A stretch of DNA of 37,241 nucleotides, from the NCBI GenBank assembly GCA_007122875.1, contig SKSS01000080.1, positions 1-37,241 on the forward strand, read 5' to 3'. Under the pieces are notes generated by a model that was given only the letters and a program-made list of their open reading frames with translations, did no database searches and was not told the origin of the DNA. Positions 975 to 21,944 of the stretch are shown here, piece by piece. Source of the DNA: Salinarchaeum sp. Lineage in GTDB: Archaea; Halobacteriota; Halobacteria; Halobacteriales; QS-1-68-20. A program made the position numbers and the translations under genes. Every line of letters starts with the position of its first letter. Position 1 is the first letter of the stretch.

Positions 975-2143
975 TAACCGAGCGAGAACAGCCGATTCGT
1001 TACGATCGCCGCCAGCGCAATTCCCATCACGACCGCCAACAGCCCAAAGGCAACCTCCCACCCGACGAGGTCGGCGAGCGCGCCGACTACAACGCTCCCC
1101 GCCGCGCCGACGGTCATATACACCGTCCGGACCAGCCCGAACCCCCGTCCACGTTCGGCGTCCGCGAGGTTATCCATGAAGCGCGACTGCAACGGGGCAC
1201 CCCAGCTCATCGAGACGCCCACGACGACCACCGCCAGCACCGTCGTGGCCGTCCCGTTTGCGCCGACGAGCAACAGATATCCTCCGGTGCCCATCACCAT
1301 CGTCCCCGCGACGGCTGCGTCCCTCGAGTATCGGTCCGAGAGCGCCCCCAACAGCGGCTGTGTCGCCCCGTGAACCACGAAGTACAGCGAGAACAGCGCG
1401 CCGGCCATCGTCCGGGAGAACGCCTGCCCCTCCTCTAAAAACGCCGGAAGAAACGACGCCGTTGCCTGCCAGGTGAACGCCCCGATGATCGCCAGTCCGG
1501 TCGTGTAGGCAATCTCCGGGCGGGTGAGCAGCTCCCTGAGGCCGTCGAGCGCGACTCGTTCTCGGATGGGTTCGTCCGGAACCCGCGGCTCGGTCCGCTC
1601 GACCCGCCATGCGAACAGGATGAACACCGGAATCGCCACGGCGGCTCCGGTCGCGATCGCCGCCTGCCAGCCGTACCGTGCCCCGACCGCAGCGGCGGCG
1701 ATCGGCGCGAGCAGCCCCGCGAGCGGCCCTCCGGCGACGTGAACCCCGATTGCCCGGCCGATGTCGTCGAACTGGCGGGTCAGCAGCGTTGTCGCCACGC
1801 TGTAGTGAAGCCCCGCCGCTGCCCCGAGTCCGACCGCAACCAGCGCGAACAGGGCGAACGACGGCGAGAGCGCGAGCAGGAGGCTGGCGACGGCCGTTCC
1901 CCCGACGGCCGTCAGGATGACAACGCGCTCTCCGTAGCGATCACCGAGGACGCCGCTCGGAAACTGTGAGAGCGCGTACGCCGCCCACATGCCCGAGAGC
2001 GCCAGTCCGACGAGCCCGTGGCTCACGTCGAACGCATCAACGATGTCGGGGACGACGGGGCTGATCGCCAGCCGGGCGACCATCGTTGCGAAGAACGCGA
2101 GCATACAGAGTCCAAGAACGGTGTGACGGTAGCGCCAGCGCAC
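971..2143 (-). CDS. MFS transporter
   Basis: Multiple TM segments and the MFS loop motif GVLGDRYGERVV, with a second domain GALSDRYSRD. The start is uncertain: the first plausible in-frame GTG is near 2143, and the ORF track's N-terminus lies inside the upstream gene in another frame. Confidence 0.85.
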   Translation of the reverse strand: MRWRYRHTVLGLCMLAFFATMVARLAISPVVPDIVDAFDVSHGLVGLALSGMWAAYALSQFPSGVLGDRYGERVVILTAVGGTAVASLLLALSPSFALFALVAVGLGAAAGLHYSVATTLLTRQFDDIGRAIGVHVAGGPLAGLLAPIAAAAVGARYGWQAAIATGAAVAIPVFILFAWRVERTEPRVPDEPIRERVALDGLRELLTRPEIAYTTGLAIIGAFTWQATASFLPAFLEEGQAFSRTMAGALFSLYFVVHGATQPLLGALSDRYSRDAAVAGTMVMGTGGYLLLVGANGTATTVLAVVVVGVSMSWGAPLQSRFMDNLADAERGRGFGLVRTVYMTVGAAGSVVVGALADLVGWEVAFGLLAVVMGIALAAIVTNRLFSLGY

Positions 2144-2220
2144 GACCGCCAGTTTATCGGGGATGTGAAAATCGGTTCCGATGACGGCAGAGGCGTACCG
2201 GGACCGACTGGGATTCTCGA

Positions 2221-3582
2221 TCAGCGTCGCCGGCCACCGGGCGGACGGAGGAACAGCCCCATCAGTCCCGCGAGCAACGCCATGATGCCGCCAACGACAA
2301 AGCTCGCGTCCCAGCCGATCACGCCGACGAGCCAGCCGACGACGCCGCCGCCGAAGACGCCGCCCCACATCTTGCTGGAGTACAGCAGCGCGTAGTTCGA
2401 CGATGAGTGCTCGTGGCCGTAGTAGTCGGCGACCGTACTCGGAAAGAGCGAAAACTGGGAACTCCAGAAGAAGACGGCCACGACGACGGCGATGACGTAG
2501 CCCGCGCCGACCTCGAACGCCCCGAAACCGACGATCGCCAGGGTGGCGACCCCGCATACGAGAAACGACCCGGCCATCACCCGTTCCCGTCGCATCCGAT
2601 CGGAGAGTCCGCCGACGATCAACCGCCCGCCACCGGAGGCGAGCGGGAGGAGCGTGGCCGCGACCGTCGCCACCAGCGCGGTTAGTTCCAGCTGTTCGGC
2701 GTAGAGGACGACCCGCGCCGTGATCATCAGTCCCGCACCGGCGACGAACGTAAACATGAGGTACATCGTCCAGAACTGCCACGTTCGAACGGTTTCCCGC
2801 CAGGTGTACTGTTTCGGCTGGCTGCGCTCGTAGCCGCCGTCCTCCCGTACCGTTCCTTCGGAATTGGCGTCGGGAGACCCCGTTTCGGTATCGTGATCGT
2901 CCTCAGCGTCGATCCCCGCGCGTTCGGAATCGGTGGCGTCGTCGGTCTCGAACGCCGTCTCCGAGACGAATCCCGACGGCGGATCCCGCAGGACGAACGC
3001 CCCGACTGCGATCCCGAGACCGATCAGCACGCCCATCCCCGTGAGCACGTACGGGAGCGACTCCGGCGCGGAGTACGCCCGGACGAACGGGACGAACAGG
3101 GCGCTTCCGCCGCCGAACGCCATCGTTCCGACGCCAGTCGTGAGCCCGCGCTTGTCGGGAAACCACTTGATCGCGGTGTTGACCGCAATCGTGTAGACGA
3201 TCCCGACGCCGACCGCGCCGATCGCGTAACTCACGTACAGCACCCACGTCTCGGCGGCGAACGCGGTTCCGAGATAGCCGCCACCCGCCAGCACGCCAGC
3301 GAGCAGCGTCAGCTTCCGGGGTCCGTAGCGGTCACGATACCAGCCGGCCGGAAACTGCGCCAGTGACATCACGACGACGTAGACCGTGAACACGAACCCG
3401 ATCACCGCGAGCGAAGCGTCCAGGCGGATCGCCAGCGGTCCCTCGATTGACGACCAGACGTACTGATACGGGCTCACCAGCGCCATCATCACCGCCGCAG
3501 CGGTGACTTGCCACCACCGCGAGTACCCCAGCACTTCTTTCGCGCGGGCCGAATAATCGCTCTCGTCGTGTGCTGCCGTCAT
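2221..3582 (-). CDS. MFS transporter, OFA (oxalate/formate antiporter-like) family
   Basis: 453 aa, about 12 TM; FPAGWYRDRYGPRKLTLLAGVLAGGGYLGTAFA and GIVYTIAVNTAIKWFPDKRGLTTGVGTMAFGGGSALFVP are typical of the OFA family. Confidence 0.85.
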   Translation of the reverse strand: MTAAHDESDYSARAKEVLGYSRWWQVTAAAVMMALVSPYQYVWSSIEGPLAIRLDASLAVIGFVFTVYVVVMSLAQFPAGWYRDRYGPRKLTLLAGVLAGGGYLGTAFAAETWVLYVSYAIGAVGVGIVYTIAVNTAIKWFPDKRGLTTGVGTMAFGGGSALFVPFVRAYSAPESLPYVLTGMGVLIGLGIAVGAFVLRDPPSGFVSETAFETDDATDSERAGIDAEDDHDTETGSPDANSEGTVREDGGYERSQPKQYTWRETVRTWQFWTMYLMFTFVAGAGLMITARVVLYAEQLELTALVATVAATLLPLASGGGRLIVGGLSDRMRRERVMAGSFLVCGVATLAIVGFGAFEVGAGYVIAVVVAVFFWSSQFSLFPSTVADYYGHEHSSSNYALLYSSKMWGGVFGGGVVGWLVGVIGWDASFVVGGIMALLAGLMGLFLRPPGGRRR

Positions 3583-3848
3583 GGATGTCCCAGTGTACTA
3601 CGCACGGTTGCCGCGCTTCGTTCGTCTTCCACGTCTGTGTCACACTCCATCATCGGGCCGCCTTATCGGTTGCCATCCCGGCACCAGTTCGGGGATGATC
3701 CCGCGTTCCCGAGCGACTGACAAGCCGCCCGTGCCGAAGTCGGATCAGAGCCGGTCCAGGAGAGCATACGTACCCGTCGTCGGCGCGGAAGGATGCTACC
3801 GCTCGAACTCATGACGCCAGTCCTACATTTTGGCCCGAAACATAACGT

Positions 3849-3857
3849 ATTTATATC
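3849..3857 (+). promoter_or_regulatory. Archaeal TATA box of the globin-coupled sensor gene
   Basis: atttatatc about 25 nt upstream of the GTG start at 3879, spacing typical of a leaderless haloarchaeal transcript. Confidence 0.6.
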
Positions 3858-3878
3858 TTTCCCCAAATATGTTCCATC

Positions 3879-5507
3879 GTGGCTATTGACAAGCGATTCG
3901 GTCGGGGTGGCCTGAACGAACAGGTCAATCCCGCGGAACTTCTCGATTCGATCGGGCTGGACGACGACGAACTCGCCTGGCGAAAAGAACACATCAATTT
4001 CGACGAGACGGACGTGGAGCGGCTGTCTGCGTTAGAGGATGTCTTTCGCGCTCACGACGACGAAATCGCCGATCGGTTCTACGAGAATCTCACGAATCAC
4101 GACCGCACACTGGAGATTTTCAGTCGTTCTCCGAAGGGTATCGAGGAGTTGAAAGAGACGCAGCGAGCGTATCTCGTCACGCTCTCTGCTGGCAACTACG
4201 GCGAGGAATACTTCCGAGACCGGGCCCGAATCGGCAAGCTTCACGACCTGCTGGAGATGCCGCTGAATCACTACATCGGCCAGTACGGGATCTATTACAC
4301 CCTCCTGCTGGAAGTGCTCGATGACCGTATTCAGGAGAACGTCGTCGAGGCGATCCGTGAGTGGACCGTCGAGGAGTTCGACGACAGTGACGAGACCGGC
4401 GTCGGCTCTCGGCTGTTCGGGGCGTTCGGACGCGACGACGCACACGGAGAGACCGGAGAACTGTCCGCCGCTCTCGAAGAGACCGTCCGAGAGGAGATCC
4501 ACGCCAACGTACAGGATCTGCTGTCGGTCCTTCGGATCATCAACCTCGACATGCAGGTTGCCGTGGACACGTACGTCGACTCTTACAGCAGCCAGATCGA
4601 AGCGGAAGCCGAACGCCGCGCGCAACTCGCGAAGGAGGTTCAACGGGACGCCTGGAATCCGCTTCGGGACCTCAACACCGCCGCTGGCGAGGTCGCCCGG
4701 AGTGCCGAGGAGATCAGCGCTCGGACCGAGCAGAGCACGGAGGGCATCACGGCCATCGCCGACGAACTGGCGAACGTCGGTGCGGCCACCGAGGAGATCG
4801 CTTCGACAGCGAGCGAGGTAGAGGAGACGGCCAGACACGCACGGAGGACCGCTCAGAACGGGCGAAACGAAGCCGAACGTGCGTTCTCGGCGGTGTCGGA
4901 CGTAACCGAAGCGACGCGGGACGTCGGCGAAGAGGTCGCCGACCTCGAATGCGTTCTCGACGACCTCGATGACACCCTGGAGAGCCTCGACGAAGTCACG
5001 CGCCAGACCAAGCGAATCGGTCGAGAGGCGACGTTACAGTCGACACAGGCCAGCGGCGATCGGGAGACGCTCAGAGCCCTCGCTGACGAGGTGAAGTCGT
5101 TCGCCGACGAGACCGAACGACGGTTGGAGTCCGTCTACGGACAGGTCGAGTCCATGCACGACCCGCTCCGATCGACCGCCGAGTCGGTGGAGGTCGCACT
5201 CGACGAGGTCGAAGACGGAACCGAATGCGTCGAATCGTGCATGCAATCCCTCGACGAGATCGTCGACGCCATCGAGGAGGCCACCGACGGCGTCGGCGAC
5301 GTCGCGGACGCGACCGAGTCACAGGCCGAGAGCGCGGAAGGGGTCGCCGCGGCCGCCGATCAGGCCGCCGCCGAAATCGATGCCATCGCCGGCGAAACCA
5401 GCGACATCGCCGCCGCAACCGAAGAGCAGAAAGCACAGTTGGCACAGATCGTCCACTCGCTCAAACGGTTGACCGAGGAAAACGAAACGGTGGAAGCCAC
5501 CGGCTGA
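3879..5507 (+). CDS. Globin-coupled sensor / HemAT-like transducer (protoglobin domain plus MCP-type coiled coil)
   Basis: GTG start. N-terminal protoglobin-like helices (HDDEIADRFYENLTNHDRTLEIF...LKETQRAYLVTLSAGNYGEEYFRDRARIGKLHDLLEMPLNHYIGQYGIY). Long C-terminal MCP-like coiled coil, no TM. Confidence 0.88.
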   Translation: MAIDKRFGRGGLNEQVNPAELLDSIGLDDDELAWRKEHINFDETDVERLSALEDVFRAHDDEIADRFYENLTNHDRTLEIFSRSPKGIEELKETQRAYLVTLSAGNYGEEYFRDRARIGKLHDLLEMPLNHYIGQYGIYYTLLLEVLDDRIQENVVEAIREWTVEEFDDSDETGVGSRLFGAFGRDDAHGETGELSAALEETVREEIHANVQDLLSVLRIINLDMQVAVDTYVDSYSSQIEAEAERRAQLAKEVQRDAWNPLRDLNTAAGEVARSAEEISARTEQSTEGITAIADELANVGAATEEIASTASEVEETARHARRTAQNGRNEAERAFSAVSDVTEATRDVGEEVADLECVLDDLDDTLESLDEVTRQTKRIGREATLQSTQASGDRETLRALADEVKSFADETERRLESVYGQVESMHDPLRSTAESVEVALDEVEDGTECVESCMQSLDEIVDAIEEATDGVGDVADATESQAESAEGVAAAADQAAAEIDAIAGETSDIAAATEEQKAQLAQIVHSLKRLTEENETVEATG

Positions 5508-5660
5508 GACGGCGACCGTCAGTTGCGGTCACGCGGTAACAGGAACCGACCGGCCCGGTCGATAGCCAGCGGAGCGTAGACGAGCGAGCCACACGGCAGA
5601 CGAGGAGAAAGTCCATGACGTCAGTCGTGGGAATATCAACCGATGGTTGAGCGATCGCGT

Positions 5661-6053
5661 TCAGTCGTCCACGGTGGATTCGACGAACTCGAAAAGCTTA
5701 TCAAACTCGTCCGGAAGGCCGTTTTTCGCCTTCTCGATGTTTCCCACCGGGACGACTTCTCCGACGACCGCCACGATCTGCTGGGCGTGATAGTTCGCGT
5801 CGGCGCGATCGACGCCCTCGCGATCGGCGACCCGGTTGAGGAACTCGTCGTAGCCGAAACGTTGGCCGTGATCCGCTTCGGCTAGGTACCGATCGATCTC
5901 CATCGGCAACGGACTGGCGAGGTCGGTCGCCTCCCCCTCGGGTAGTCGCTCACCGAGCGTGGTGAGTGTCGCCCGCGTCGCCCGGACTGCCGGGCCGAGT
6001 TCGGCCAGTTCGAGCCGGTTCTGTACCTGCCCCAGAAACTCCTTGTAATTCAC
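5661..6053 (-). CDS. DUF2267 domain-containing protein
   Basis: GTG start at 6053. VNYKEFLGQVQNRLELAELGPAVRATRATLTTLGERLPEGEATDLASPLPMEIDRYL...FGYDEFLNRVA matches the DUF2267 pattern. Confidence 0.8.
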   Translation of the reverse strand: MNYKEFLGQVQNRLELAELGPAVRATRATLTTLGERLPEGEATDLASPLPMEIDRYLAEADHGQRFGYDEFLNRVADREGVDRADANYHAQQIVAVVGEVVPVGNIEKAKNGLPDEFDKLFEFVESTVDD

Positions 6054-6177
6054 CCTGATTCCCTCCCCGCGATCGGTTACAACCGGCTGGCAGAAATAGC
6101 CGAGGGTCGGTTCACGAATAGCGTCACCGACTCGCCGATACAGGGATTGATAGCCCTCCGATCCGAACGCTCGGGCG

Positions 6178-6801
6178 ATGACGGACCGATCGCTGGCGGG
6201 ACTTGTCCTCGCCGGAGGGTTTTCGACGCGGTTCGGGGAGGAAGAGAAGGCCGTTGCGCCCCTCTCTGGAACGCCGATGATTCGTCGGGTGGTCGATCGA
6301 CTCTGCAAGGTCACCGATGAGATCGTGGTGAACTGCCGATCGGAGCAACTCGACGCGCTTCGAGACGCCCTTGACGATCGGGTCGAGGTACCGAGGTTCG
6401 CGGTCGATCCAGTTGCCGATCGAGGGCCGATCGGTGGCATCCACACCGGACTCGACGCAATCGATGCCGAGTACGCCGCGGTTGTCGCCTGCGACATGCC
6501 GTTCCTCGATCCGGCGCTGTTCGATCTCCTCCTCGGACGCGCACAGCAGCACGATGGTGCCGTCGTCCGACTCGACGATGGGTGGTTCCAGACCACGCAG
6601 GCGATCTATCGAACCGACCCGATGCGTCGTGCCTGCGCCGACGCGATCGACGCCGCCGACAACCGGATCCTGACCGCGCTGGACGAACTCGACTGGGTCG
6701 TCGTAGAGCAGCGGGATCTCGAAGCCGAGGGGATTTCGCTCGACACGTTCGAGAGCATCGATACGAAGGAAGATCTTCGGGCGGCGGAGCGACGCCTCTG
6801 A
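6178..6801 (+). CDS. mobA: Molybdenum cofactor guanylyltransferase (MobA-like NTP transferase)
   Basis: Nucleotidyltransferase motif LVLAGGFSTRFGEEEKAVAPLSGTPMIRRV and DRGPIGGIHTGL...VVACDMPFLDP. Confidence 0.9.
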   Translation: MTDRSLAGLVLAGGFSTRFGEEEKAVAPLSGTPMIRRVVDRLCKVTDEIVVNCRSEQLDALRDALDDRVEVPRFAVDPVADRGPIGGIHTGLDAIDAEYAAVVACDMPFLDPALFDLLLGRAQQHDGAVVRLDDGWFQTTQAIYRTDPMRRACADAIDAADNRILTALDELDWVVVEQRDLEAEGISLDTFESIDTKEDLRAAERRL

Positions 6802-6847
6802 TTCCGTGGAACCCCACGTCGGACCGGCAGCGATCGGGTCGACGTGC

Positions 6848-7597
6848 TCACCGAATCACGTCGACGACGGGCCGGTCCGCGATCATCCGGGCGATCACGA
6901 CGCGGGGAACGTCGGTTCGGTCGAGCACCTCGGCTGCGATCTCCCGTCCGAGACGCTCCAGCGCCGGCGTGTCGGCCATGTTCAGCATCGGAACGACCGT
7001 CGCGTCCGCCGGCACGTCCTTTCGCCCGGCCCGCTCGCTCGCCAGAATAGTGGCGACGTGTTCCGGGCGGATCGCCTCCCCCTCGTCGAGACCGGTGATC
7101 GACGCGACCCGCTCGGGTCGATGAACTACCCCCTCGTCGAGTGGCTCACCCACGGCTTGGACGCTTGCAATCGGGACGACGGTGTCGGCCGAGACGGGAA
7201 GCTGTGGTTCGTTTTCCTTCGGAGCCTTGAGCCAGCGAGTGCGCGCACCGTCGGCTTTCACGAGGATCGCACACTCCTCGCCGACCGCGGCCGCCAGGTC
7301 GTCGACGACGCGGGGATCGTACCCGCGATAGCGATCGGGACCGTCCCGTGCCGCGACGAGTCCGACGGGCCACCGTGGGGACTCACGGACGGCCGCGATC
7401 GGATCGTCGGTCACGCGAACCGAGTCGACGTGTCGCTCGAACGGCGGAATCCGAACGGTCGAGGTGACGATTGCCCGGTCGATTCGTTCGGCGAGCGCGT
7501 AGAGGGTCGACTTCTTCCCGCCAGCTCCGACGACACACGTCACGCCACGGTCGGCATCGAGCGCGGAGACGAGCGAGGAGGTCACGTGTCCGTTCAT
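6848..7597 (-). CDS. yqeC: Selenium cofactor biosynthesis protein YqeC-like
   Basis: CVVGAGGKKSTLYALA (P-loop-like), VKADGARTRWLKAPKENEPQLP and VHRPERVASITGLDEGEAIRPEHVA are characteristic of YqeC. Confidence 0.85.
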   Translation of the reverse strand: MNGHVTSSLVSALDADRGVTCVVGAGGKKSTLYALAERIDRAIVTSTVRIPPFERHVDSVRVTDDPIAAVRESPRWPVGLVAARDGPDRYRGYDPRVVDDLAAAVGEECAILVKADGARTRWLKAPKENEPQLPVSADTVVPIASVQAVGEPLDEGVVHRPERVASITGLDEGEAIRPEHVATILASERAGRKDVPADATVVPMLNMADTPALERLGREIAAEVLDRTDVPRVVIARMIADRPVVDVIR

Positions 7598-7733
7598 GGC
7601 TCTCAGTCACACTCTGGGAACTTGGTCCTACCCCAATCGATCACGGCAACCGATTCGTTCGCTTCCAACACCAGTTGCCGTCGGGTCGGAGTTCAGAACC
7701 GCTGGAACCCCCAGCAGGCCACCGCACGACACC

Positions 7734-7783
7734 ACACCTACCGCGACGCCAGCACCGGACACCTACCGCGACGCCAGCACCGG
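7734..7783. repeat. 25-bp perfect tandem duplication (2 copies) at the 3' end of the Usp gene
   Basis: acacctaccgcgacgccagcaccgg occurs at 7734-7758 and again at 7759-7783. The minus strand encodes PVLASR-stop in both copies. Confidence 0.95.
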
Positions 7784-8644
7784 AATCGACGAGTGCCGAA
7801 GGACCCGCGCGGTCGTGCTGCCGAGTAGGACGGCGGGACGGCCGGTCCGGCCACGGGTTCCCATCGCCACGAGGTCAGCGTCGATGCGTTCGCCCCGGTC
7901 GAGAATCTCCCGGAAGGGGACGCCCCGCCGAACGCTCGTCGTGTACCCGAGTCCCGCCTCCTCGGCGAGACTCGCCACCTCATCGACGGCCCGTCGGCCG
8001 GCCGCTTCTAGCGGACCGAGGAGGCTTCGCGGGGCATCCTCGTACCGCATCGGTGCCTCGTCGACGACGTAGACCGCGTGGACGGTCGCGTCGTACCGCT
8101 CCGCGACTGCGATCGCGGAGTCGGCGGCCCGTTCGGCTCCGTCGCTCCCGTCGGTCGGAACGAGCACGTCGTCGTAACTCGGAAGCTCCTCCGGGTCGTC
8201 GGGTTGTCGATCGCTGGAGCCGACCGGAACCGCGAGAACAGGGGCGGCCGACCGTCGAATGACCCGCTCTGTCGTACTTCCCAGCCGCGGACGATCCGGC
8301 CCGGATCGGCTCCTGGTCGCCATCACCACCAGTTCGATCCCCGCCTCGTCGACGTATGTCAGGATCGCCTCGTGTGCGACCCCGTCTCGATGCTCGCGAC
8401 TCGCGTCCACCCCGACCTCGGCCGCTCGGGTGGCGATCCGTTCGGTCGCGCTCCGGCCGGCCGCGTCGGTCACCGTCCGAAGCTCCCGGCGTTCGTCCCC
8501 TGAAAGCGCCTGCTCCTCGGTTGGGTCGGTGACGAAGAGCGCGTGGACCCGCCCATCATACCGATCGGCGATACCCAGCGCGTGAGCGACGGCGCGCTCG
8601 CTTCCCTCACGGGCGTCCGTCGGAAGGAGGACGTTCGAGTACAT
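7763..8644 (-). CDS. Universal stress protein with two UspA domains
   Basis: MYSNVLLPTDAREGSERAVAHALGIA...VVMATRSRSGPDRPRLGSTTERVIRRSAAPVLAVP, then YDDVLVPTDGSDGAERAADSAI...VAMGTRGRTGRPAVLLGSTTARVLRHSSIPVLASR. Confidence 0.92.
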   Translation of the reverse strand: MYSNVLLPTDAREGSERAVAHALGIADRYDGRVHALFVTDPTEEQALSGDERRELRTVTDAAGRSATERIATRAAEVGVDASREHRDGVAHEAILTYVDEAGIELVVMATRSRSGPDRPRLGSTTERVIRRSAAPVLAVPVGSSDRQPDDPEELPSYDDVLVPTDGSDGAERAADSAIAVAERYDATVHAVYVVDEAPMRYEDAPRSLLGPLEAAGRRAVDEVASLAEEAGLGYTTSVRRGVPFREILDRGERIDADLVAMGTRGRTGRPAVLLGSTTARVLRHSSIPVLASR

Positions 8645-8809
8645 CGCTTCGGACTCGACGTGATGGCCCTTGAAACGAATGTACGGCGACGAGAGAGTTT
8701 TTCTACCGGGGAACCGTCCAGCCGCCGTACTCGTCGTCCAGCAGCGTGAGGGGGTTCCGAGAACGGCGGACCCCACCAACCTTTTGTCCTCACCGTCGAA
8801 GCGGATGCC

Positions 8810-9883
8810 ATGGGTGGGGAACTGCTTGTCTATGGGTCGTACGGCTACACGGGATCGCTGATCGCTCGACGGGCGGTCGCCGAGGGGATGTCGCCGATTC
8901 TCGCCGGTCGGCGGGCGGAACCGGTCGAACGACAGGCGACGATGCTCGACTGTGACCACCGCGTGTTCAGCCTCGATCATCCGGCGATCGTCGAGGAGGC
9001 GATCGAGGATGCCGACGTGCTCGTGAACTGCGCCGGGCCGTTTGCGGACACCGCGAGGTCGCTCGTCGAAGCCTGTCTGCGGACCGGAACCGAGTACCTG
9101 GACATCACTGGCGAGTACCGCGTGCTGGAGTCGATCGCCGAACGGGACCGCGAGGCCGAGCGCGCCGAGATCACGCTCCTTCCCGGCGTCGGGTTCACCG
9201 TGGCGGTCACCGACTGTCTGGCCGCCCTTCTCGACGCGGAGCTATCGTCGGCGACCCACCTCGAGCTGGGGGTCGATCACGGTGGAACGGCTTCCGCGGG
9301 GACTGCGAAGTCGGGGATAGAGGGGCTACGTACCCCCGGTGCGGTCCGCGAGCAAGGGGCGATCCGCGAGGTGCCGGCCGCCTGGCGGCGACGCGAGATC
9401 GACTTCGGCGACGGACCGCGCACGGCCGTGACGATCCCGACCGGCGACGTGTCGACGGCGTACTACTCGACCGGCATTCCGAACGTCGAGACGTACGTCA
9501 CCGTTCCCGAGCGGGCCGCGTGGGCGATGGAACGAACCCGCTGGGCGACGCCGATTCTCGCTGCTGGACCCGTCCAGCGCCTGTTGAAGCGGACCGCCGA
9601 CGTGCTGGTGTCGCCCCCGTCGTCGGACGACCGCGCTGCAGGAGGGTGTCGCGTGTGGGGAGAGGTGGTTGACGACGACGGGAACGTCGCCGATGGACGG
9701 CTGCGCACGCCCGATCCGTTCGACGTGACGACGGACACCGCAGTCGAGGCCGCTCGGCGAGTGCTCGATGGCGACGTTTCACCGGGCTTCCAGACCCCGG
9801 CGTCCGCGTTCGGGCCGTCGTTCGCCCTCGAACTCGACGGTATCGAGGTGGAGGGTGCGGTAGCGTACGCAGGCGTCGAGTAG
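8810..9883 (+). CDS. Saccharopine dehydrogenase-like / trans-acting enoyl reductase family NAD(P)-binding protein
   Basis: LLVYGSYGYTGSLIARRAVAEGMSPILAGRR Rossmann motif; VLVNCAGPFADTARSLVEACLRTGTEYLDITGE. Confidence 0.9.
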   Translation: MGGELLVYGSYGYTGSLIARRAVAEGMSPILAGRRAEPVERQATMLDCDHRVFSLDHPAIVEEAIEDADVLVNCAGPFADTARSLVEACLRTGTEYLDITGEYRVLESIAERDREAERAEITLLPGVGFTVAVTDCLAALLDAELSSATHLELGVDHGGTASAGTAKSGIEGLRTPGAVREQGAIREVPAAWRRREIDFGDGPRTAVTIPTGDVSTAYYSTGIPNVETYVTVPERAAWAMERTRWATPILAAGPVQRLLKRTADVLVSPPSSDDRAAGGCRVWGEVVDDDGNVADGRLRTPDPFDVTTDTAVEAARRVLDGDVSPGFQTPASAFGPSFALELDGIEVEGAVAYAGVE

Positions 9884-15940: not shown

Positions 15941-16150
15941 ACCAAACCTCTACGGAGGACTCTATTAAAACGTATGTGTAGATTGTTGGACACGGTTCAA
16001 TTCCTCTGGAGAGACAGGGAACAAAAATCTGTTCACCCGACACCGGAATGTGGGGGAGACACACCGGTCGCTCAGTCGGAGTCGAATGCTCTCGGAACGA
16101 GGAGTGCTCTTTTCAGCGGTACAGTTGTCCCAAACTGAGTTTCCTGACTG

Positions 16151-18781
16151 TTGAGTTATCTTCAAGTCGATAGGGTCAGTGTTGCAAACGTGCCATTACA
16201 CGAAGCACGATCGATCGATCACCTGTATTCATCAGTCGCAGACTACGATCTCGTTCTCACGGCCGAAGCGCCGCTTGCGCTCGCCCTCGACAATCGCGTG
16301 CAGACACCTCGTATTGGCCGGTTATCGGCGACACCACGTAGCTACGCTGCTCAGAAGCTGTTTCCAGACGACATCCGACCGCTCTTTTCCGACGTGATCG
16401 AACGGACTGACCTCTCGTGGAAACAGGCCGTGAGAGCGCTCGAACTCTCGATTGATTGTTGGACTGCCACCGGCGACCGTGAAGCGATACTCGACTATCC
16501 AGCGTTCGACACGCCAGCAACGCAGACGATTGTGACGCTGCTGAACGAACTGGAGAGCAGTTATCTCGTCGCTGATCGGACGACGATCTCTGCGGAGCAC
16601 GATGTCGCCGTTGTCGACGAGCAACAACTTTCCACACTCGACCAGAAGGTGCTTCCACCACCGTCTGAGTACAGTTCTTACTCGTCACTAACTGACACGG
16701 AGATCGCGTTCCCCGAACTCCACATCTTTCCGTCAGCTACGTCGATCGTCTCAACGATCGTCGACCAGATCGACCCCGACACAGCCGATCAGTTCGGGAT
16801 CGTACTCGTCGAAGGAAGCCTGTACAGCGCGCTGATCGAATCCGCTCTCGACGCACAGGGAATACCGTATCGTGGCGGACCCGGGTTCGAAGAGGACGAG
16901 AACGTACGGGGACTCTTGCGGCTGTTGGAAACGGCGTTCGCCGGGTCGAATCAACGAGTGTCGGATATCCGACCCATCCTTACGACCGCTGGAATCGAGG
17001 TTCCCTGGGACGTGGACAACAGCCGGGTTGATTCGCTCGCTTCGGGACAGTTGGGGACCTACGACGAGTTTCGGGAGACCGTTGCGACCGGAACGTTTCG
17101 TGACACCCTTTCGGTCTACGAATCGATGGTTGACACGCGGCTCACGGAGCTTCGTCGAGAGCTTGATGAACTGGGGTTGCTGGACGAACCAGTAACAGAG
17201 GATCGGCTTACCCAGTTTCAGTACTACCTGGACGCGTTCACCGTTCCGACCGACACGAATGACCGTGACGGCGTGCTTTTGGCGGGCGCAACATCGACAG
17301 CGTACGTCGACAGACCGATCGTGTTCTACGTCGGTCTGGGTCCTGAATGGGCGCAGACGCCCCCGGACTATCCGTGGGTCGATCCCGAGGCGTTTCTCGA
17401 CGCCGATGTCGCACGGTTCGAACGGCTCCTTCAAAACGGCGAACAGCGATACTACTTCGTTCAGGAAACCCAGGCAGGAAGTGACGTAACGCCCTGTGTG
17501 TATCTTCGCCAGCTCCACGAGGAACCGTTTGAAACGTTCGGTGATCTGCCACACGAACGCTACGGCGGACGTGCACCCGGAACGCCGATCTCACCATTCT
17601 CGGCTCCGATGGTGACTGAGACGACGACAAAGCCAGTCACCACGATCAGCCAATCACGGCTCCAATCCCTCGCTAACGCCCCGAGAGACGCATACTTCGA
17701 TCGACTTGTGGAGACACCTGAGTCGCTTCCGATGGTTCGAGGGACTGTCCTCCACGAAGCGGCCGAGATCCACGTCTGTGATCCCACTGTACTCGGACCC
17801 CGGCGCGAGGACGTTCTCGATGCGATGTGCGCTCGGTTGGATCCTTACCTCGGTGATGCCGATCGAGCGGTTCAACGGACACGTCTGGCAGTCGGGCTGG
17901 ACGCTGTTGTCGCGTTCTTACAACAGAACCCACCGGAAGAGGTGGAGTACGAGACGTACGACTTCCGGAACCAGGAGAACGAACTTGCAGCCGAACTCGG
18001 GGTCGAACTCGATTCACCGATCACCGAGCGGTGGTTCGCGTCACCATCAATCGGCGTCCACGGCTACGTCGACCTGCTACAAAACGCCACGGCGCTCGTC
18101 GATTATAAGACCGGCAATAAGAACGACGCGTCGGCGATTCTCGATGCCGCGTCGATCGATCCGGTCGACGAGTATCCGGATTTCCAGGCACTCGTTTATC
18201 TCACAAAGCACAGAGAAGAACGTCCCGATGAGCGACTCCGGATACACTTCGTCCACTTGCTCTCCGGCGTTGAAGAGGCGGTTCACGGTACTCCCCTGGA
18301 TCCGGCCGACCTCGTGACGACACTCACCTACGTTCCCGCAACGTTCAGTGAGTTCGTCGCCAGCCGGGATACGTTCGAGGCAGTAACTGAGTACGCCGAT
18401 TCGAACGATCGATGCAAAGCCCTCCAACCGCTCGGTTACGAGGCGTATCGAGACTTTTTCGAAGCGAACGAACTTCCACGGGCCGGGGAAGACCCCTCGC
18501 GACGTGAGCGGGTAACGGAGCGGTTCGTCGAATACACACAGGAGCACGTTGGTGAGTACAAGTACGTCAGGGATGGCTGTGAGACGGTCATCGACGATCT
18601 CGACGACGTTCCGACCGGCTACGTTCTCACGTCCGATCTCGACGCCTTCGAAGCGTTCGTCGAGGAGCAACTCACCGCACTGAACGAGTATCGTGCGAGT
18701 CGATTCCCGGTCGCATACCGAGACGACGGGCCGAACTGGGATCGAGTTGACCACCGCGATCTGATCCTCACAGACCGATGA
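16151..18781 (+). CDS. AddB-like PD-(D/E)XK nuclease protein
   Basis: 876 aa, TTG start. C-terminal RecB-type nuclease: RGTVLHEAAEIHV...IGVHGYVDLLQNATALVDYKTGNK...DFQALVYLTKH. No Walker A visible. Stop overlaps the helicase ATG. Confidence 0.8.
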   Translation: MSYLQVDRVSVANVPLHEARSIDHLYSSVADYDLVLTAEAPLALALDNRVQTPRIGRLSATPRSYAAQKLFPDDIRPLFSDVIERTDLSWKQAVRALELSIDCWTATGDREAILDYPAFDTPATQTIVTLLNELESSYLVADRTTISAEHDVAVVDEQQLSTLDQKVLPPPSEYSSYSSLTDTEIAFPELHIFPSATSIVSTIVDQIDPDTADQFGIVLVEGSLYSALIESALDAQGIPYRGGPGFEEDENVRGLLRLLETAFAGSNQRVSDIRPILTTAGIEVPWDVDNSRVDSLASGQLGTYDEFRETVATGTFRDTLSVYESMVDTRLTELRRELDELGLLDEPVTEDRLTQFQYYLDAFTVPTDTNDRDGVLLAGATSTAYVDRPIVFYVGLGPEWAQTPPDYPWVDPEAFLDADVARFERLLQNGEQRYYFVQETQAGSDVTPCVYLRQLHEEPFETFGDLPHERYGGRAPGTPISPFSAPMVTETTTKPVTTISQSRLQSLANAPRDAYFDRLVETPESLPMVRGTVLHEAAEIHVCDPTVLGPRREDVLDAMCARLDPYLGDADRAVQRTRLAVGLDAVVAFLQQNPPEEVEYETYDFRNQENELAAELGVELDSPITERWFASPSIGVHGYVDLLQNATALVDYKTGNKNDASAILDAASIDPVDEYPDFQALVYLTKHREERPDERLRIHFVHLLSGVEEAVHGTPLDPADLVTTLTYVPATFSEFVASRDTFEAVTEYADSNDRCKALQPLGYEAYRDFFEANELPRAGEDPSRRERVTERFVEYTQEHVGEYKYVRDGCETVIDDLDDVPTGYVLTSDLDAFEAFVEEQLTALNEYRASRFPVAYRDDGPNWDRVDHRDLILTDR

Positions 18782-21675
18782 GCGAGATTTCACCCAACCC
18801 AGCCCAGCAGACGTTGATCGAGAGCACCGAGGGGATCTCCCTCGTCAATGCCGGGGCTGGAACCGGCAAAACGTTCACCATCACGCATCGATACGCGAAC
18901 ATCCTCGACCAGCCAGGAATCGACCCTGACGACGTGTTATTGGTCACGTTCACCCGAAACGCTGCTGCGGAGATGGCCGATCGAATCGCCCAGCAGTCAC
19001 CGTACGATCCCGTCCAGTTGCAGGACGCTCCGATCAGTACGTTCCACGGCTACTGTTATCGCCTGTTGCGACGGTATGGCCACGAGACGCCGAGTGTGCT
19101 GGGAATCGACGACCAGATTCCACAGTCACTCGATCTCATCGAAGACGGAATTCGGGAACGGGTGCTGTTCAACGCGTTCATCTCACAGTTTGCGGATCGA
19201 CACCCGGAGTACGACCACCTCTTTGCGGCCATCGATTCGCCTCCGTCCCTTTGCTCATTGATCGCCGAACTCGCCGCGAAAGGCGTGATTCCCCAGCGTG
19301 ATGGCTGGTATCGGGAGACGGATTCGTCGCTCGACGGTGATCAGGAGGCGTTCATGACACTCTTCGAGCGAGAGAACCACCCGAACGAGGGAGCGAACGG
19401 ACCAACGCAATCCGATGCTCGTTCGTCCATGAGCGGCTGGGAGAACACGGAGTACACCCCAGACGCGCCGACAGCCGATGAGGTCGTTGGCTACCCACAG
19501 CTGTATGCTGAGCCGGTCGAGCGGGCGTTCGACGAGGACCGCGAGGAGTTGTTCGCGTTCGTCCACGACGTGTACTTCGAGTATCTCCAGTACGCATTGC
19601 GTCGCAACTACCTCACCCAGGGTCTCATGCTCGCTTTTACCTTCGTGATGCTGTGTGAGAACTCAGGCGTCCGCGAACAGGTGCAGCATCGGTACGTGAT
19701 GGTCGACGAGTTTCAGGATACCAACGAACTCCAGTTCAAACTCACGCTACTGCTCTCCGAAACGGACAACATCTGCGTCGTGGGCGACTGGAAGCAGAGC
19801 ATCTACGGCTTCCAGTATACGACCGTCGAAAACATCCAGCGGTTCGATGAGCGAATCGCCCGATACAAAGCCGAACTGAATCGTGACGACCACAGAGTCA
19901 CGTATCCTGTCGACGATGTCGAGGAACTCCCGCTAACGCAGAATTACCGATCGACCGAGTCGATTCTCTCGGTGGCCACGGAGACGCTGACCGTTCCAGC
20001 TACCGGCAGTGAATCGGTCGACGCTGAAGCGATCGAACGTGAACTCACGCCGTTAACGGCGACGAACTACGTCGACAACAGCCAGATCGAGGCGGTAGCG
20101 CACGAGGACGAGCCAGAGTTGATACTCGACCGAATACAGCACGTCGTCGACAACGAGGCGTATCGCGTCGAAGTGCGTGACGAACCGAACCCGACGGACG
20201 AGATGACGCAGGCCGAAAAGACGGCTGCCGAACGCGAGCGACTCGGGTCCCCATCCTACGGTGATATCGCTGTCTTTACGCGGACGCGATCGTTCGCCAG
20301 AGAACTTCTCGAAACGGCACAGGAATATGGCATCCCGATGGCGTACGAAGGCGGGATCGAGTTGTTCGACACCGACCAGGCGAAGCTCCTGCTCGCGTGG
20401 CTTCGGATCTGTGAAGCCGACGATACCCGTGGATGGGCAGCGGTACTGGAAGATGCGGGATACACACTTCCACAGGCCACGGAGATCCTCGACTCGGAAC
20501 CGTATCCCGATTCGATGGTCGCGTTCCGAAACCGCCTTCGAGAGTGCGAGACCATCGGGGGATTCGCCCGGATTGTCTTCGACGAATACGGCTACCATGG
20601 AGCGTATGCGAACGGTCTGCTCGGGGAACTCACCGGCATGCACGAGTCCACCGGTTCGACCCGGAGCGAGGCAATCGCGTACATCGAAGCGAACCTCGAA
20701 GCCGGGTCGACGGTCGAGATCGATTCGAACCCAGGCGAGGATGCCGTAACCCTCCAGACGATCCATGGCGCGAAGGGACTCGAATATCCGATCGTGTTCT
20801 GTGCAAACATGAATCGCCGCGCGTTCCCTCACTACGGAACACCATCCTCCGGAACGATCCAGTATCGGGATCCGATCGGTCTCAGACAGCGCTCCGTGTA
20901 CGACGAGTCGAACGGACAGCCATTCGTCTACCGGCACTGGCCGTATGATCTCCTGACTGGCTGTCTTCCGTCCGAGTACGACGAGGAGCGACGACTCCTC
21001 TACGTCGCGGTGACGCGAGCGAAGCGACATCTGTTCCTCACGGCTGGGGACGAGCCAAGCCCGTTTTTCACCGAATTGTCCCTGGACGCCGAGGAGATTG
21101 AACCATCAGTTACCGAACTGGAACTCGAGCCTGAAGACGATGACGCGTTCGCAGTCACCGTTCCGGAGCGCTCCCGCCCGCGTCGGATGAGCGTCCACGA
21201 CATTATGGACGAGAGCGTGTACGAGGATGTCGATGACGGGCGGGGAACGGCGTTCGGCGATCGGTTACATCAGTTCGCCGAGGACTACGTTCGGGGTGAG
21301 GATGTTTCGCCGTCCGGCGACGATCAGGCGAACGTACAGGCGTTGGTGGATTCGCTCGCCGGCGAACTCGAACCGGAAGTTCTCGCAATCTTGCCGCTCG
21401 ATCTGGAACCGCAGGTCACACTCGTCGGAATCATCGATCTGCTCGTACTCACCCCGGAGCAGATTCGAATCATCGACTACAAGACGGATCTGAGCCGTCA
21501 CGCCGAAGCCGAATACCGCACGCAACTCAGCGTGTACTATCACGTCGTCTCCGAGCAGTATCCGGAACGGGACGTATCGATACAGATGTTCTACACTGCC
21601 GATGATGAGCTCGTCGACATAGCCCCATTGCCTCGTGAGGACGTTCGAAAGATCACGGAATCGGCAGCCTCGTAG
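18778..21675 (+). CDS. UvrD/Rep-family helicase with C-terminal PD-(D/E)XK nuclease (AddA/RecB-like)
   Basis: Walker A LVNAGAGTGKTFTITHRYA, Walker B VMVDEFQDTNELQ, GDWKQSIYGFQYT, TIHGAKGLEYPIVF, VAVTRAKRHLFLT. C-terminal GTAFGDRLHQFAEDY...GIIDLLVLTPEQIRIIDYKTD...YRTQLSVYY. Confidence 0.93.
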   Translation: MSEISPNPAQQTLIESTEGISLVNAGAGTGKTFTITHRYANILDQPGIDPDDVLLVTFTRNAAAEMADRIAQQSPYDPVQLQDAPISTFHGYCYRLLRRYGHETPSVLGIDDQIPQSLDLIEDGIRERVLFNAFISQFADRHPEYDHLFAAIDSPPSLCSLIAELAAKGVIPQRDGWYRETDSSLDGDQEAFMTLFERENHPNEGANGPTQSDARSSMSGWENTEYTPDAPTADEVVGYPQLYAEPVERAFDEDREELFAFVHDVYFEYLQYALRRNYLTQGLMLAFTFVMLCENSGVREQVQHRYVMVDEFQDTNELQFKLTLLLSETDNICVVGDWKQSIYGFQYTTVENIQRFDERIARYKAELNRDDHRVTYPVDDVEELPLTQNYRSTESILSVATETLTVPATGSESVDAEAIERELTPLTATNYVDNSQIEAVAHEDEPELILDRIQHVVDNEAYRVEVRDEPNPTDEMTQAEKTAAERERLGSPSYGDIAVFTRTRSFARELLETAQEYGIPMAYEGGIELFDTDQAKLLLAWLRICEADDTRGWAAVLEDAGYTLPQATEILDSEPYPDSMVAFRNRLRECETIGGFARIVFDEYGYHGAYANGLLGELTGMHESTGSTRSEAIAYIEANLEAGSTVEIDSNPGEDAVTLQTIHGAKGLEYPIVFCANMNRRAFPHYGTPSSGTIQYRDPIGLRQRSVYDESNGQPFVYRHWPYDLLTGCLPSEYDEERRLLYVAVTRAKRHLFLTAGDEPSPFFTELSLDAEEIEPSVTELELEPEDDDAFAVTVPERSRPRRMSVHDIMDESVYEDVDDGRGTAFGDRLHQFAEDYVRGEDVSPSGDDQANVQALVDSLAGELEPEVLAILPLDLEPQVTLVGIIDLLVLTPEQIRIIDYKTDLSRHAEAEYRTQLSVYYHVVSEQYPERDVSIQMFYTADDELVDIAPLPREDVRKITESAAS

Positions 21676-21720: not shown

Positions 21721-21741
21721 TGCTCCGGCGGGGATGTGAAC
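21721..21741 (-). repeat. Truncated copy of the tRNA-Glu 3' end (att-like)
   Basis: tgctccggcggggatgtgaac matches 21870-21890 (tgctccggcggggatttgaac) with one mismatch. Confidence 0.85.
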
Positions 21742-21852: not shown

Positions 21853-21869
21853 GGTAGTTTCGACAGAAG

Positions 21870-21944
21870 TGCTCCGGCGGGGATTTGAACCCCGGTCATT
21901 GCCTCGAGAGGGCAATATGATTGGCCGGACTACACCACCGGAGC
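21870..21944 (-). tRNA. tRNA-Glu (anticodon CTC)
   Basis: Reverse complement GCTCCGGTGGTGTAGTCCGGCCAATCATATTGCCCTCTCGAGGCAATGACCGGGGTTCAAATCCCCGCCGGAGCA. Acceptor GCTCCGG/CCGGAGC, anticodon stem TTGCC/GGCAA with loop CTCTCGA, T-loop GTTCAAAT. Confidence 0.95.

What the first reader, a model, noticed from the sequence alone, without database searches (positions are those of the whole stretch)
16151..21675. AddAB-like two-gene helicase-nuclease module in an archaeon
The upstream 876-aa protein carries a C-terminal RecB-type nuclease (GYVDLL...LVDYKTG) but no visible Walker A and no CxxC-type Fe-S cysteine cluster of the kind found in bacterial AddB. The downstream 965-aa protein has all UvrD motifs plus its own nuclease (IIDYKTD). 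They overlap by ATGA. This dual-nuclease, single-motor architecture is AddAB-like, but most of the AddB-like protein is divergent. It could be the haloarchaeal break-resection machine, since archaea more usually use HerA-NurA, or a defence-related helicase-nuclease.
Basis: partly seen in the sequence, partly recalled or inferred. Interest (0 to 1): 0.65.

Follow-up and report, generated by a model that had tools for sequence, protein, structure and literature searches.

The report
Mobile archaeal AddAB-like helicase-nuclease gene pair
A two-gene DNA-unwinding-and-cutting machine, built like the bacterial AddAB enzyme, jumps between salt-loving archaea as a bare 5.5-kb cassette and often lands beside BREX virus-defence genes, so it is more likely an add-on weapon against foreign DNA than the cells' main DNA-break repair machine.

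Summary
Two genes overlap by ATGA at 18778-18781. The second (965 aa) has an intact UvrD motor plus a RecB-type nuclease. The first has an intact RecB-type nuclease, no Walker A and no AddB-type Fe-S cysteines; its real start is GTG 16190 (863 aa). AlphaFold/Foldseek pairs them with AddB and AddA of Bacillus AddAB, so the AddAB-like reading is supported at fold level. The "haloarchaeal break-resection machine" reading is not. A NurA-family protein is in 290/294 haloarchaeal genomes, including this one (beside a HerA-like ATPase), whereas the pair is in about 42%, varies within genera, is sometimes multi-copy and is often on plasmids. It spreads between genera as a clean two-gene cassette: near-identical copies sit in unrelated flanks, homology running from about 40 nt before gene 1 to the stop of gene 2. 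Where pair and BREX-5 share a genome, 11/24 have them within 30 kb (0.5 expected), on at least 10 label changes of the tree; CRISPR cas1 shows no such link. Best explanation: a mobile, stand-alone AddAB-like end-degrading helicase-nuclease acting mainly against foreign DNA. Enzymology and defence role are inferred, not shown. I found no description of it in the searchable literature.

The parts
16190..18781 (+). addB-like gene (863 aa; GTG start at 16190, not TTG 16151)
   Evidence: fold AddB
16190..17635 (+). N-terminal region: SF1-helicase-like fold without Walker A (dead motor)
   Evidence: no Walker A in any of 75 relatives; Foldseek matches to UvrD/PcrA, which lack a nuclease domain
17642..18394 (+). 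RecB-family PD-(D/E)XK nuclease domain (GxxxHxxAE ... GYVDLL ... LVDYKTG ... QxxxY)
   Evidence: PF12705 E 1.3e-10; catalytic residues invariant
18778..21675 (+). addA-like gene (965 aa): UvrD-type SF1A helicase plus C-terminal RecB-family nuclease
   Evidence: fold AddA
18850..18873 (+). Walker A / motif I (AGAGTGKT) of the single motor
   Evidence: invariant columns A25-T32 in alignment A2
21175..21675 (+). RecB-family nuclease domain of the addA-like protein (GIIDLL ... IIDYKTD ... QLSVYY)
   Evidence: PF12705 E 7.7e-11; invariant D887, D900, K902, Q916, Y920
18778..18781 (+). ATGA overlap of stop and start codons
   Evidence: 4-8 nt overlap or near-contact in most relatives
16150..16189 (+). 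about 40 nt upstream of the start, presumed promoter. In relatives this is where cassette homology begins, with a TATA-like box at about -25 to -30
   Evidence: in the window itself the box is only inferred
21721..21741 (+). 21-nt copy (20/21) of the 3' end of the tRNA-Glu gene, lying between the pair and the tRNA: att-like remnant of integration
   Evidence: 0 matches in 100 shuffles
21869..21944 (-). tRNA-Glu(ctc), 3' end facing the pair: likely integration hotspot
   Evidence: the same tRNA lies about 230 bp from the pair in Halorubrum laminariae L045

Best explanation
The two genes encode an AddAB-type heterodimer. The second subunit (AddA-like) would be the only motor and would translocate 3'-5' from a free double-stranded end. 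The first (AddB-like) would be a dead helicase plus nuclease. Each subunit's RecB-type nuclease would cut one of the two emerging strands, so the machine degrades linear DNA from its ends. It is accessory: it travels between hypersaline archaea as a bare two-gene cassette on top of the core NurA/HerA and Mre11-Rad50 set. Its main selected role is probably defence, that is, destruction of linear viral, plasmid or restricted foreign DNA, often alongside BREX-5. Shown here: motifs, folds, universal pairing, mobility, patchiness and BREX-5 co-location. Inferred: complex formation, polarity, degradation and the defence role.
For: Folds: AddB and AddA are the top PDB matches for subunit 1 and subunit 2. 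Both nuclease sites and the single motor are invariant. The pair was found together wherever it could be read, and the distances of the two subunits correlate at r = 0.98. Accessory: 123/294 genomes with a full-length copy, 10 genomes with two or three copies, 33 haloarchaeal plasmids with a near-complete match. Mobile: cassettes 94-97% identical in different genera share nothing beyond about 40 nt upstream and the final stop codon; the genus label changes 46 times on a 73-row tree and Haloarculaceae are fully scattered. Core resection genes are present anyway. Defence: within 30 kb of BREX-5 PglZ in 11/24 genomes holding both (expected 0.49, P 4e-13; 8/21, P 2e-9 without the three genomes that suggested the test; P 0.003 even if both are confined to 15% of the genome). 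In G012, G065 and G245 B-A is followed, co-oriented, by the BREX-5 operon starting at BrxA. BREX adjacency needs at least 10 label changes on the A tree. Cas1 shows 1/46 within 30 kb (expected 0.8).
Against: Most copies, including the window's, are not next to BREX or any recognised defence gene. A blind PADLOC scan of the six nearest genes was enriched in one half of the loci (201 v 42 families) but not in the other (35 v 83). No enzymatic or infection data exist. Foldseek TM-scores are moderate (0.46-0.50) because domains are arranged differently or smaller. No co-folding of the two subunits could be run. The BREX-5 P-values treat genomes as independent.
Confidence: 0.6

Rival explanations
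1. Accessory repair/recombination enzyme: an AddAB-like resection machine that gives extra double-strand-break repair or recombination in salt-stressed, polyploid cells, and helps incoming DNA recombine.
For: Bacterial AddAB is a repair enzyme (established knowledge); folds match AddA and AddB; many copies have no defence neighbour.
Against: Absent from over half of Halobacteria, nearly all of which have NurA; frequent transfer, plasmid carriage and multiple copies are unusual for a repair core; co-location with BREX-5.
Confidence: 0.25
2. A selfish or plasmid-stability module: the pair serves the megaplasmids and islands that carry it, for example by destroying competing linear elements or processing their own recombination intermediates.
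For: Found on 34 haloarchaeal plasmids (33 near-complete matches); next to integrases, transposases, ParA and Orc1/Cdc6 genes.
Against: Also on chromosomes, in clean two-gene form without any plasmid gene; none in phage records, and only nuclease-domain fragments in viral contigs.
Confidence: 0.1
3. A dedicated BREX-5 component: the helicase-nuclease supplies the nuclease that BREX seems to lack and acts only with the BREX-5 proteins.
For: B-A directly precedes and is co-oriented with brxA in G012 and G065 (about 260 nt gap) and G245 (about 1 kb); it abuts BrxHII in G031, G050, G080.
Against: Only about 15 of 122 sampled copies are near BREX, and 13 of 24 genomes with both keep them apart, so it cannot depend on BREX in general.
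Confidence: 0.05

Closest known systems
Bacterial AddAB (RexAB) helicase-nuclease
   Same: Two genes in the order B then A; single UvrD-type motor in A; RecB-family nuclease in both; top structural matches AddB and AddA.
   Different: AddB-like subunit is about 860 aa instead of about 1150 and lacks the Fe-S cysteines and Walker A; no full-length NCBIfam AddB match; archaeal, patchy, mobile, BREX-5-linked.
AdnAB (mycobacteria) and RecBCD
   Same: Same superfamily; AdnA and RecC are among the next fold matches.
   Different: AdnAB has two motor-type subunits; RecBCD has a second motor (RecD) and one nuclease. Here one motor and two nucleases.
UvrD-Cas4 (pfam12705) fusion proteins, proposed as components of several defence systems in bacteria and mesophilic archaea (PMC5704561)
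   Same: UvrD helicase with a RecB/Cas4-like nuclease, stand-alone or beside restriction genes; described there as defence-related.
   Different: A single fused protein with no AddB-like partner described. Membership of our A protein in that clade was not tested.
BREX type 5 (haloarchaeal)
   Same: Recurrent neighbour; in some genomes the pair heads the operon.
   Different: The pair is not one of the BREX-5 genes named by PADLOC or PGAP in the records seen here, and mostly occurs without BREX.
Gabija GajB and other UvrD-type defence helicases (PADLOC)
   Same: A matches GajB models through the UvrD core (E 1e-43).
   Different: A carries its own nuclease and an AddB-like partner; the match reflects the helicase core only.

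Membership tests
AddAB | AddA-like subunit: SF1A helicase motifs plus C-terminal RecB nuclease | tested here: met
AddAB | AddB-like subunit: inactive SF1 fold plus RecB nuclease | tested here: met
   fold match at E 3e-11, no Walker A
AddAB | 4Fe-4S cluster in AddB (four conserved cysteines around the nuclease) | tested here: not met
   conserved cysteines only at 103, 449 and, in part of the family, 754 and 810; no CxxC in the window protein
AddAB | Sequence-level membership of curated AddA/AddB equivalog models | tested here: not met
   A scores 166 bits against a cut-off of 708 for addA_Gpos; B matches no NCBIfam model; own genome has no TIGR02773 hit
AddAB | Heterodimer, ATP-dependent end resection, Chi response | not testable with these tools
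   only co-occurrence and correlated distances seen
Core haloarchaeal break-resection machine | Near-universal presence in the clade | tested here: not met
   pair in 123/294 genomes, NurA in 290/294
Defence system | Co-location with known defence genes beyond chance | tested here: met
   BREX-5: 11/24 within 30 kb, expected 0.49; cas1 by contrast 1/46, expected 0.8
Defence system | General enrichment of defence genes among nearest neighbours | tested here: inconclusive
   PADLOC families 201 v 42 in one half of the loci, 35 v 83 in the other
Defence system | Protects against virus or plasmid | not testable with these tools
   needs infection assays
BREX-5 component | Regularly encoded with BREX-5 | tested here: not met
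   about 15 of 122 copies near BREX
UvrD-Cas4 fusion clade | A protein falls in that monophyletic clade | not tested
   no reference sequences of that clade were at hand

The most novel reading that the evidence does not exclude
The pair is an undescribed, widespread archaeal immune module: a stand-alone AddAB derivative without an Fe-S cluster that has moved from repair to defence, spreads as a bare promoter-plus-two-genes cassette, and has repeatedly been recruited as the nuclease arm of haloarchaeal BREX-5.
Probability: 0.4. Interest if true: 0.75.

Novelty: new variant of a known kind. Interest (0 to 1): 0.55.

Why it matters
AddAB/RecBCD machines are treated as bacterial repair enzymes, and archaea are taught to use HerA-NurA with Mre11-Rad50. 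A mobile AddAB-type pair in about 42% of haloarchaea, linked to BREX-5, would show the same engine reused as an exchangeable defence part, and would offer a nuclease candidate for BREX. It also makes a question testable: what does an AddAB without an Fe-S AddB do, and how does it spare the host's own DNA ends (Chi-like sites, end protection)? Separately, the near-universal NurA hit challenges statements that haloarchaea lack nurA.

Tried and rejected
Replacement for HerA-NurA: rejected, NurA in 290/294 genomes and a HerA-like neighbour in this genome. CRISPR-adaptation partner: no co-occurrence with cas1 (46/76/57/114, P 0.46) and no proximity. Virus-encoded module: no match in phage records, only short nuclease-domain hits in viral contigs, only weak helicase or nuclease fold matches in BFVD. 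A conserved third gene: neighbour clustering found none above 9 of about 78 loci. General defence-gene enrichment: inconsistent between halves. A PDB profile search with the alignment found nothing real. The extra phylum hit G303 is an unrelated UvrD-RecB fusion in a Dnd-like locus.

Full report
Observation. The window carries two overlapping genes on the + strand. Gene B (16151-18781 as listed) has one recognisable domain, a RecB-family PD-(D/E)XK nuclease. Gene A (18778-21675) has the full UvrD helicase and a second nuclease of the same family. GC falls to 0.56-0.60 over 16-22 kb, against about 0.60-0.69 elsewhere. The profile match and blastn both start at 16190, and relatives start with GTGCCATT-like sequences, so the true start is GTG 16190 and the protein has 863 aa.

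Conservation. Eighty loci from named genomes were fetched with A. Wherever the contig allowed, an intact B-sized gene precedes A, overlapping or within about 45 nt (75 loci). No B has a Walker A motif. The nuclease residues of B and A, and the helicase motifs of A, are invariant in the alignments. The cysteines conserved in B (103, 449, partly 754 and 810) cannot form the AddB four-cysteine cluster, and the window's B has no CxxC. Pairwise distances of A and B correlate at 0.98.

Fold. AlphaFold2 with the family alignment gave pLDDT 86 / pTM 0.66 for B and 83 / 0.66 for A. Foldseek against the PDB puts AddB of Bacillus AddAB first for B (4ceh_B, E 3e-11; then AdnA, RecC and UvrD/PcrA) and AddA first for A (4cej_A, E 1e-37). 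Sequence searches alone see only the nuclease in B. The pair is therefore AddAB-like in architecture, but outside the curated AddAB families and without the Fe-S cluster.

Distribution. In 294 Halobacteria genomes a full-length B is found in 123; matches occur in 49 of 79 genera, with presence and absence inside the same genera (for example g4, g5, g6, g9, g20), and 10 genomes have two or three copies. Thirty-four haloarchaeal plasmids match, 33 of them near-completely, and none outside archaea; the usual annotations are 'PD-(D/E)XK nuclease family protein' and 'ATP-dependent DNA helicase'. Other carriers are a 2.1-Mb genome from elsewhere in the phylum (G295) and Thermoplasmata and Nanohaloarchaeota bins. 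Phage records have no match, and viral contigs only short nuclease-domain hits. By contrast NurA (PF09376) is found in 290/294, including the window's own genome, and in the Haloferax volcanii control; in the window's genome a HerA-like ATPase (DUF87 + HerA_C) sits beside it. Two papers state that nurA/herA are absent or not apparent in halophiles (PMC7776575; PMC12977600).

Mobility. Cassettes that are 94-97% identical in DNA lie in unrelated surroundings in different genera, for example Halobellus captivus v. Halorubrum, Halobellus salinus v. a Halorientalis plasmid, and Halobium v. Halogeometricum. Similarity starts 36-45 nt before the start codon, which includes a TATA-like box, and ends at about the stop of A. 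On the tree of joined A and B the family label changes 25 times and the genus label 46 times; the eight Haloarculaceae rows need eight changes. The unit that travels is promoter + B + A, with no transposase of its own. How it moves is unknown. In the window it lies next to tRNA-Glu, with a 20/21 copy of the tRNA's 3' end in between, and in Halorubrum laminariae it is about 230 bp from the same tRNA gene, so tRNA-directed integration is one plausible route.

Context. A blind PADLOC scan of the six nearest genes in 40 loci against 40 loci about 100 kb away gave 201 v 42 families in one half and 35 v 83 in the other: no consistent enrichment. Three target loci held complete BREX-5 proteins, which led to a direct test. 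BREX-5 PglZ is in 43/294 genomes, 24 of which also hold the pair. In 11 of the 24 the two are within 30 kb (expected 0.49, P 4e-13). Without the three genomes that suggested the test it is 8/21 (P 2e-9), and P is 0.003 if both are assumed confined to 15% of the genome. These P-values treat genomes as independent. In G012, G065 and G245 the order is B-A-BrxA-large protein-BrxB-BrxC-PglX, all co-oriented (PglZ follows where the region was read); in G031, G050 and G080 the pair lies tail to tail with BrxHII; in G143 and G171 it faces a divergent BREX. BREX adjacency needs at least 10 label changes on the A tree, so it arose or was lost repeatedly. Cas1 shows neither co-occurrence (P 0.46) nor proximity (1/46). 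The plasmid pHTIA confirms the BREX-5 names independently. Other annotated neighbours include DNA methyltransferases, integrases and transposases. The window's own copy has ordinary chromosomal neighbours: an aminotransferase, tRNA-Glu and CrcB genes.

How it probably works (inferred). By analogy with AddAB, the heterodimer would load on a duplex end, A would pull 3'-5', and the two nucleases would shred both strands. Because the host already has NurA/HerA and Mre11-Rad50 (the latter from general knowledge), and because the pair is mobile and drawn to BREX-5 loci, the likeliest selected role is degradation of linear foreign DNA, alone or after another system has cut or stalled it. A repair role remains possible (about 0.25).

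Known or new. No paper in the searchable library describes an archaeal AddAB or this pair. The nearest published idea is the single-chain UvrD-Cas4 fusion in defence contexts (PMC5704561). Recent defence surveys outside the library could have listed it. I rate it a new variant of a known kind.

Noticed in passing
G000:C107:8355-9311 (L262:7233-8759 and 4851-6692), and 290 of 294 Halobacteria: NurA-family proteins are nearly universal in haloarchaea, with a HerA-like ATPase next to NurA in this genome, although two papers say nurA/herA are absent or not apparent in halophiles.
   Followed up: partly
window 21721-21741 and 21869-21944: A 21-nt near-copy of the tRNA-Glu 3' end lies between the gene pair and the tRNA; it looks like an integration remnant.
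   Followed up: partly
L140 (G303:C79), 1904-9818: A UvrD-RecB fusion (1020 aa) sits beside genes that look like DndB, DndC and DndD elsewhere in the phylum; it was brought in only by its nuclease domain.
   Followed up: no
G089:C1:2860865-2863618: A B-like copy reads in one 1370-aa open frame with about 60 extra residues between its two matched halves; possible fusion or insertion.
   Followed up: no
L034 and L035 (Haloglomus halophilum chromosome): Two copies 91% identical over 6.5 kb also share about 1.1 kb upstream carrying an opposite-strand HNH/HTH-like ORF, so here the transferred unit seems larger.
   Followed up: no
neighbours of several copies (L056, L097, L102, L204, L209): A large 850-1100-aa protein family (weak type II restriction-enzyme match in L209) recurs next to the pair and was not seen in the control regions.
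   Followed up: partly
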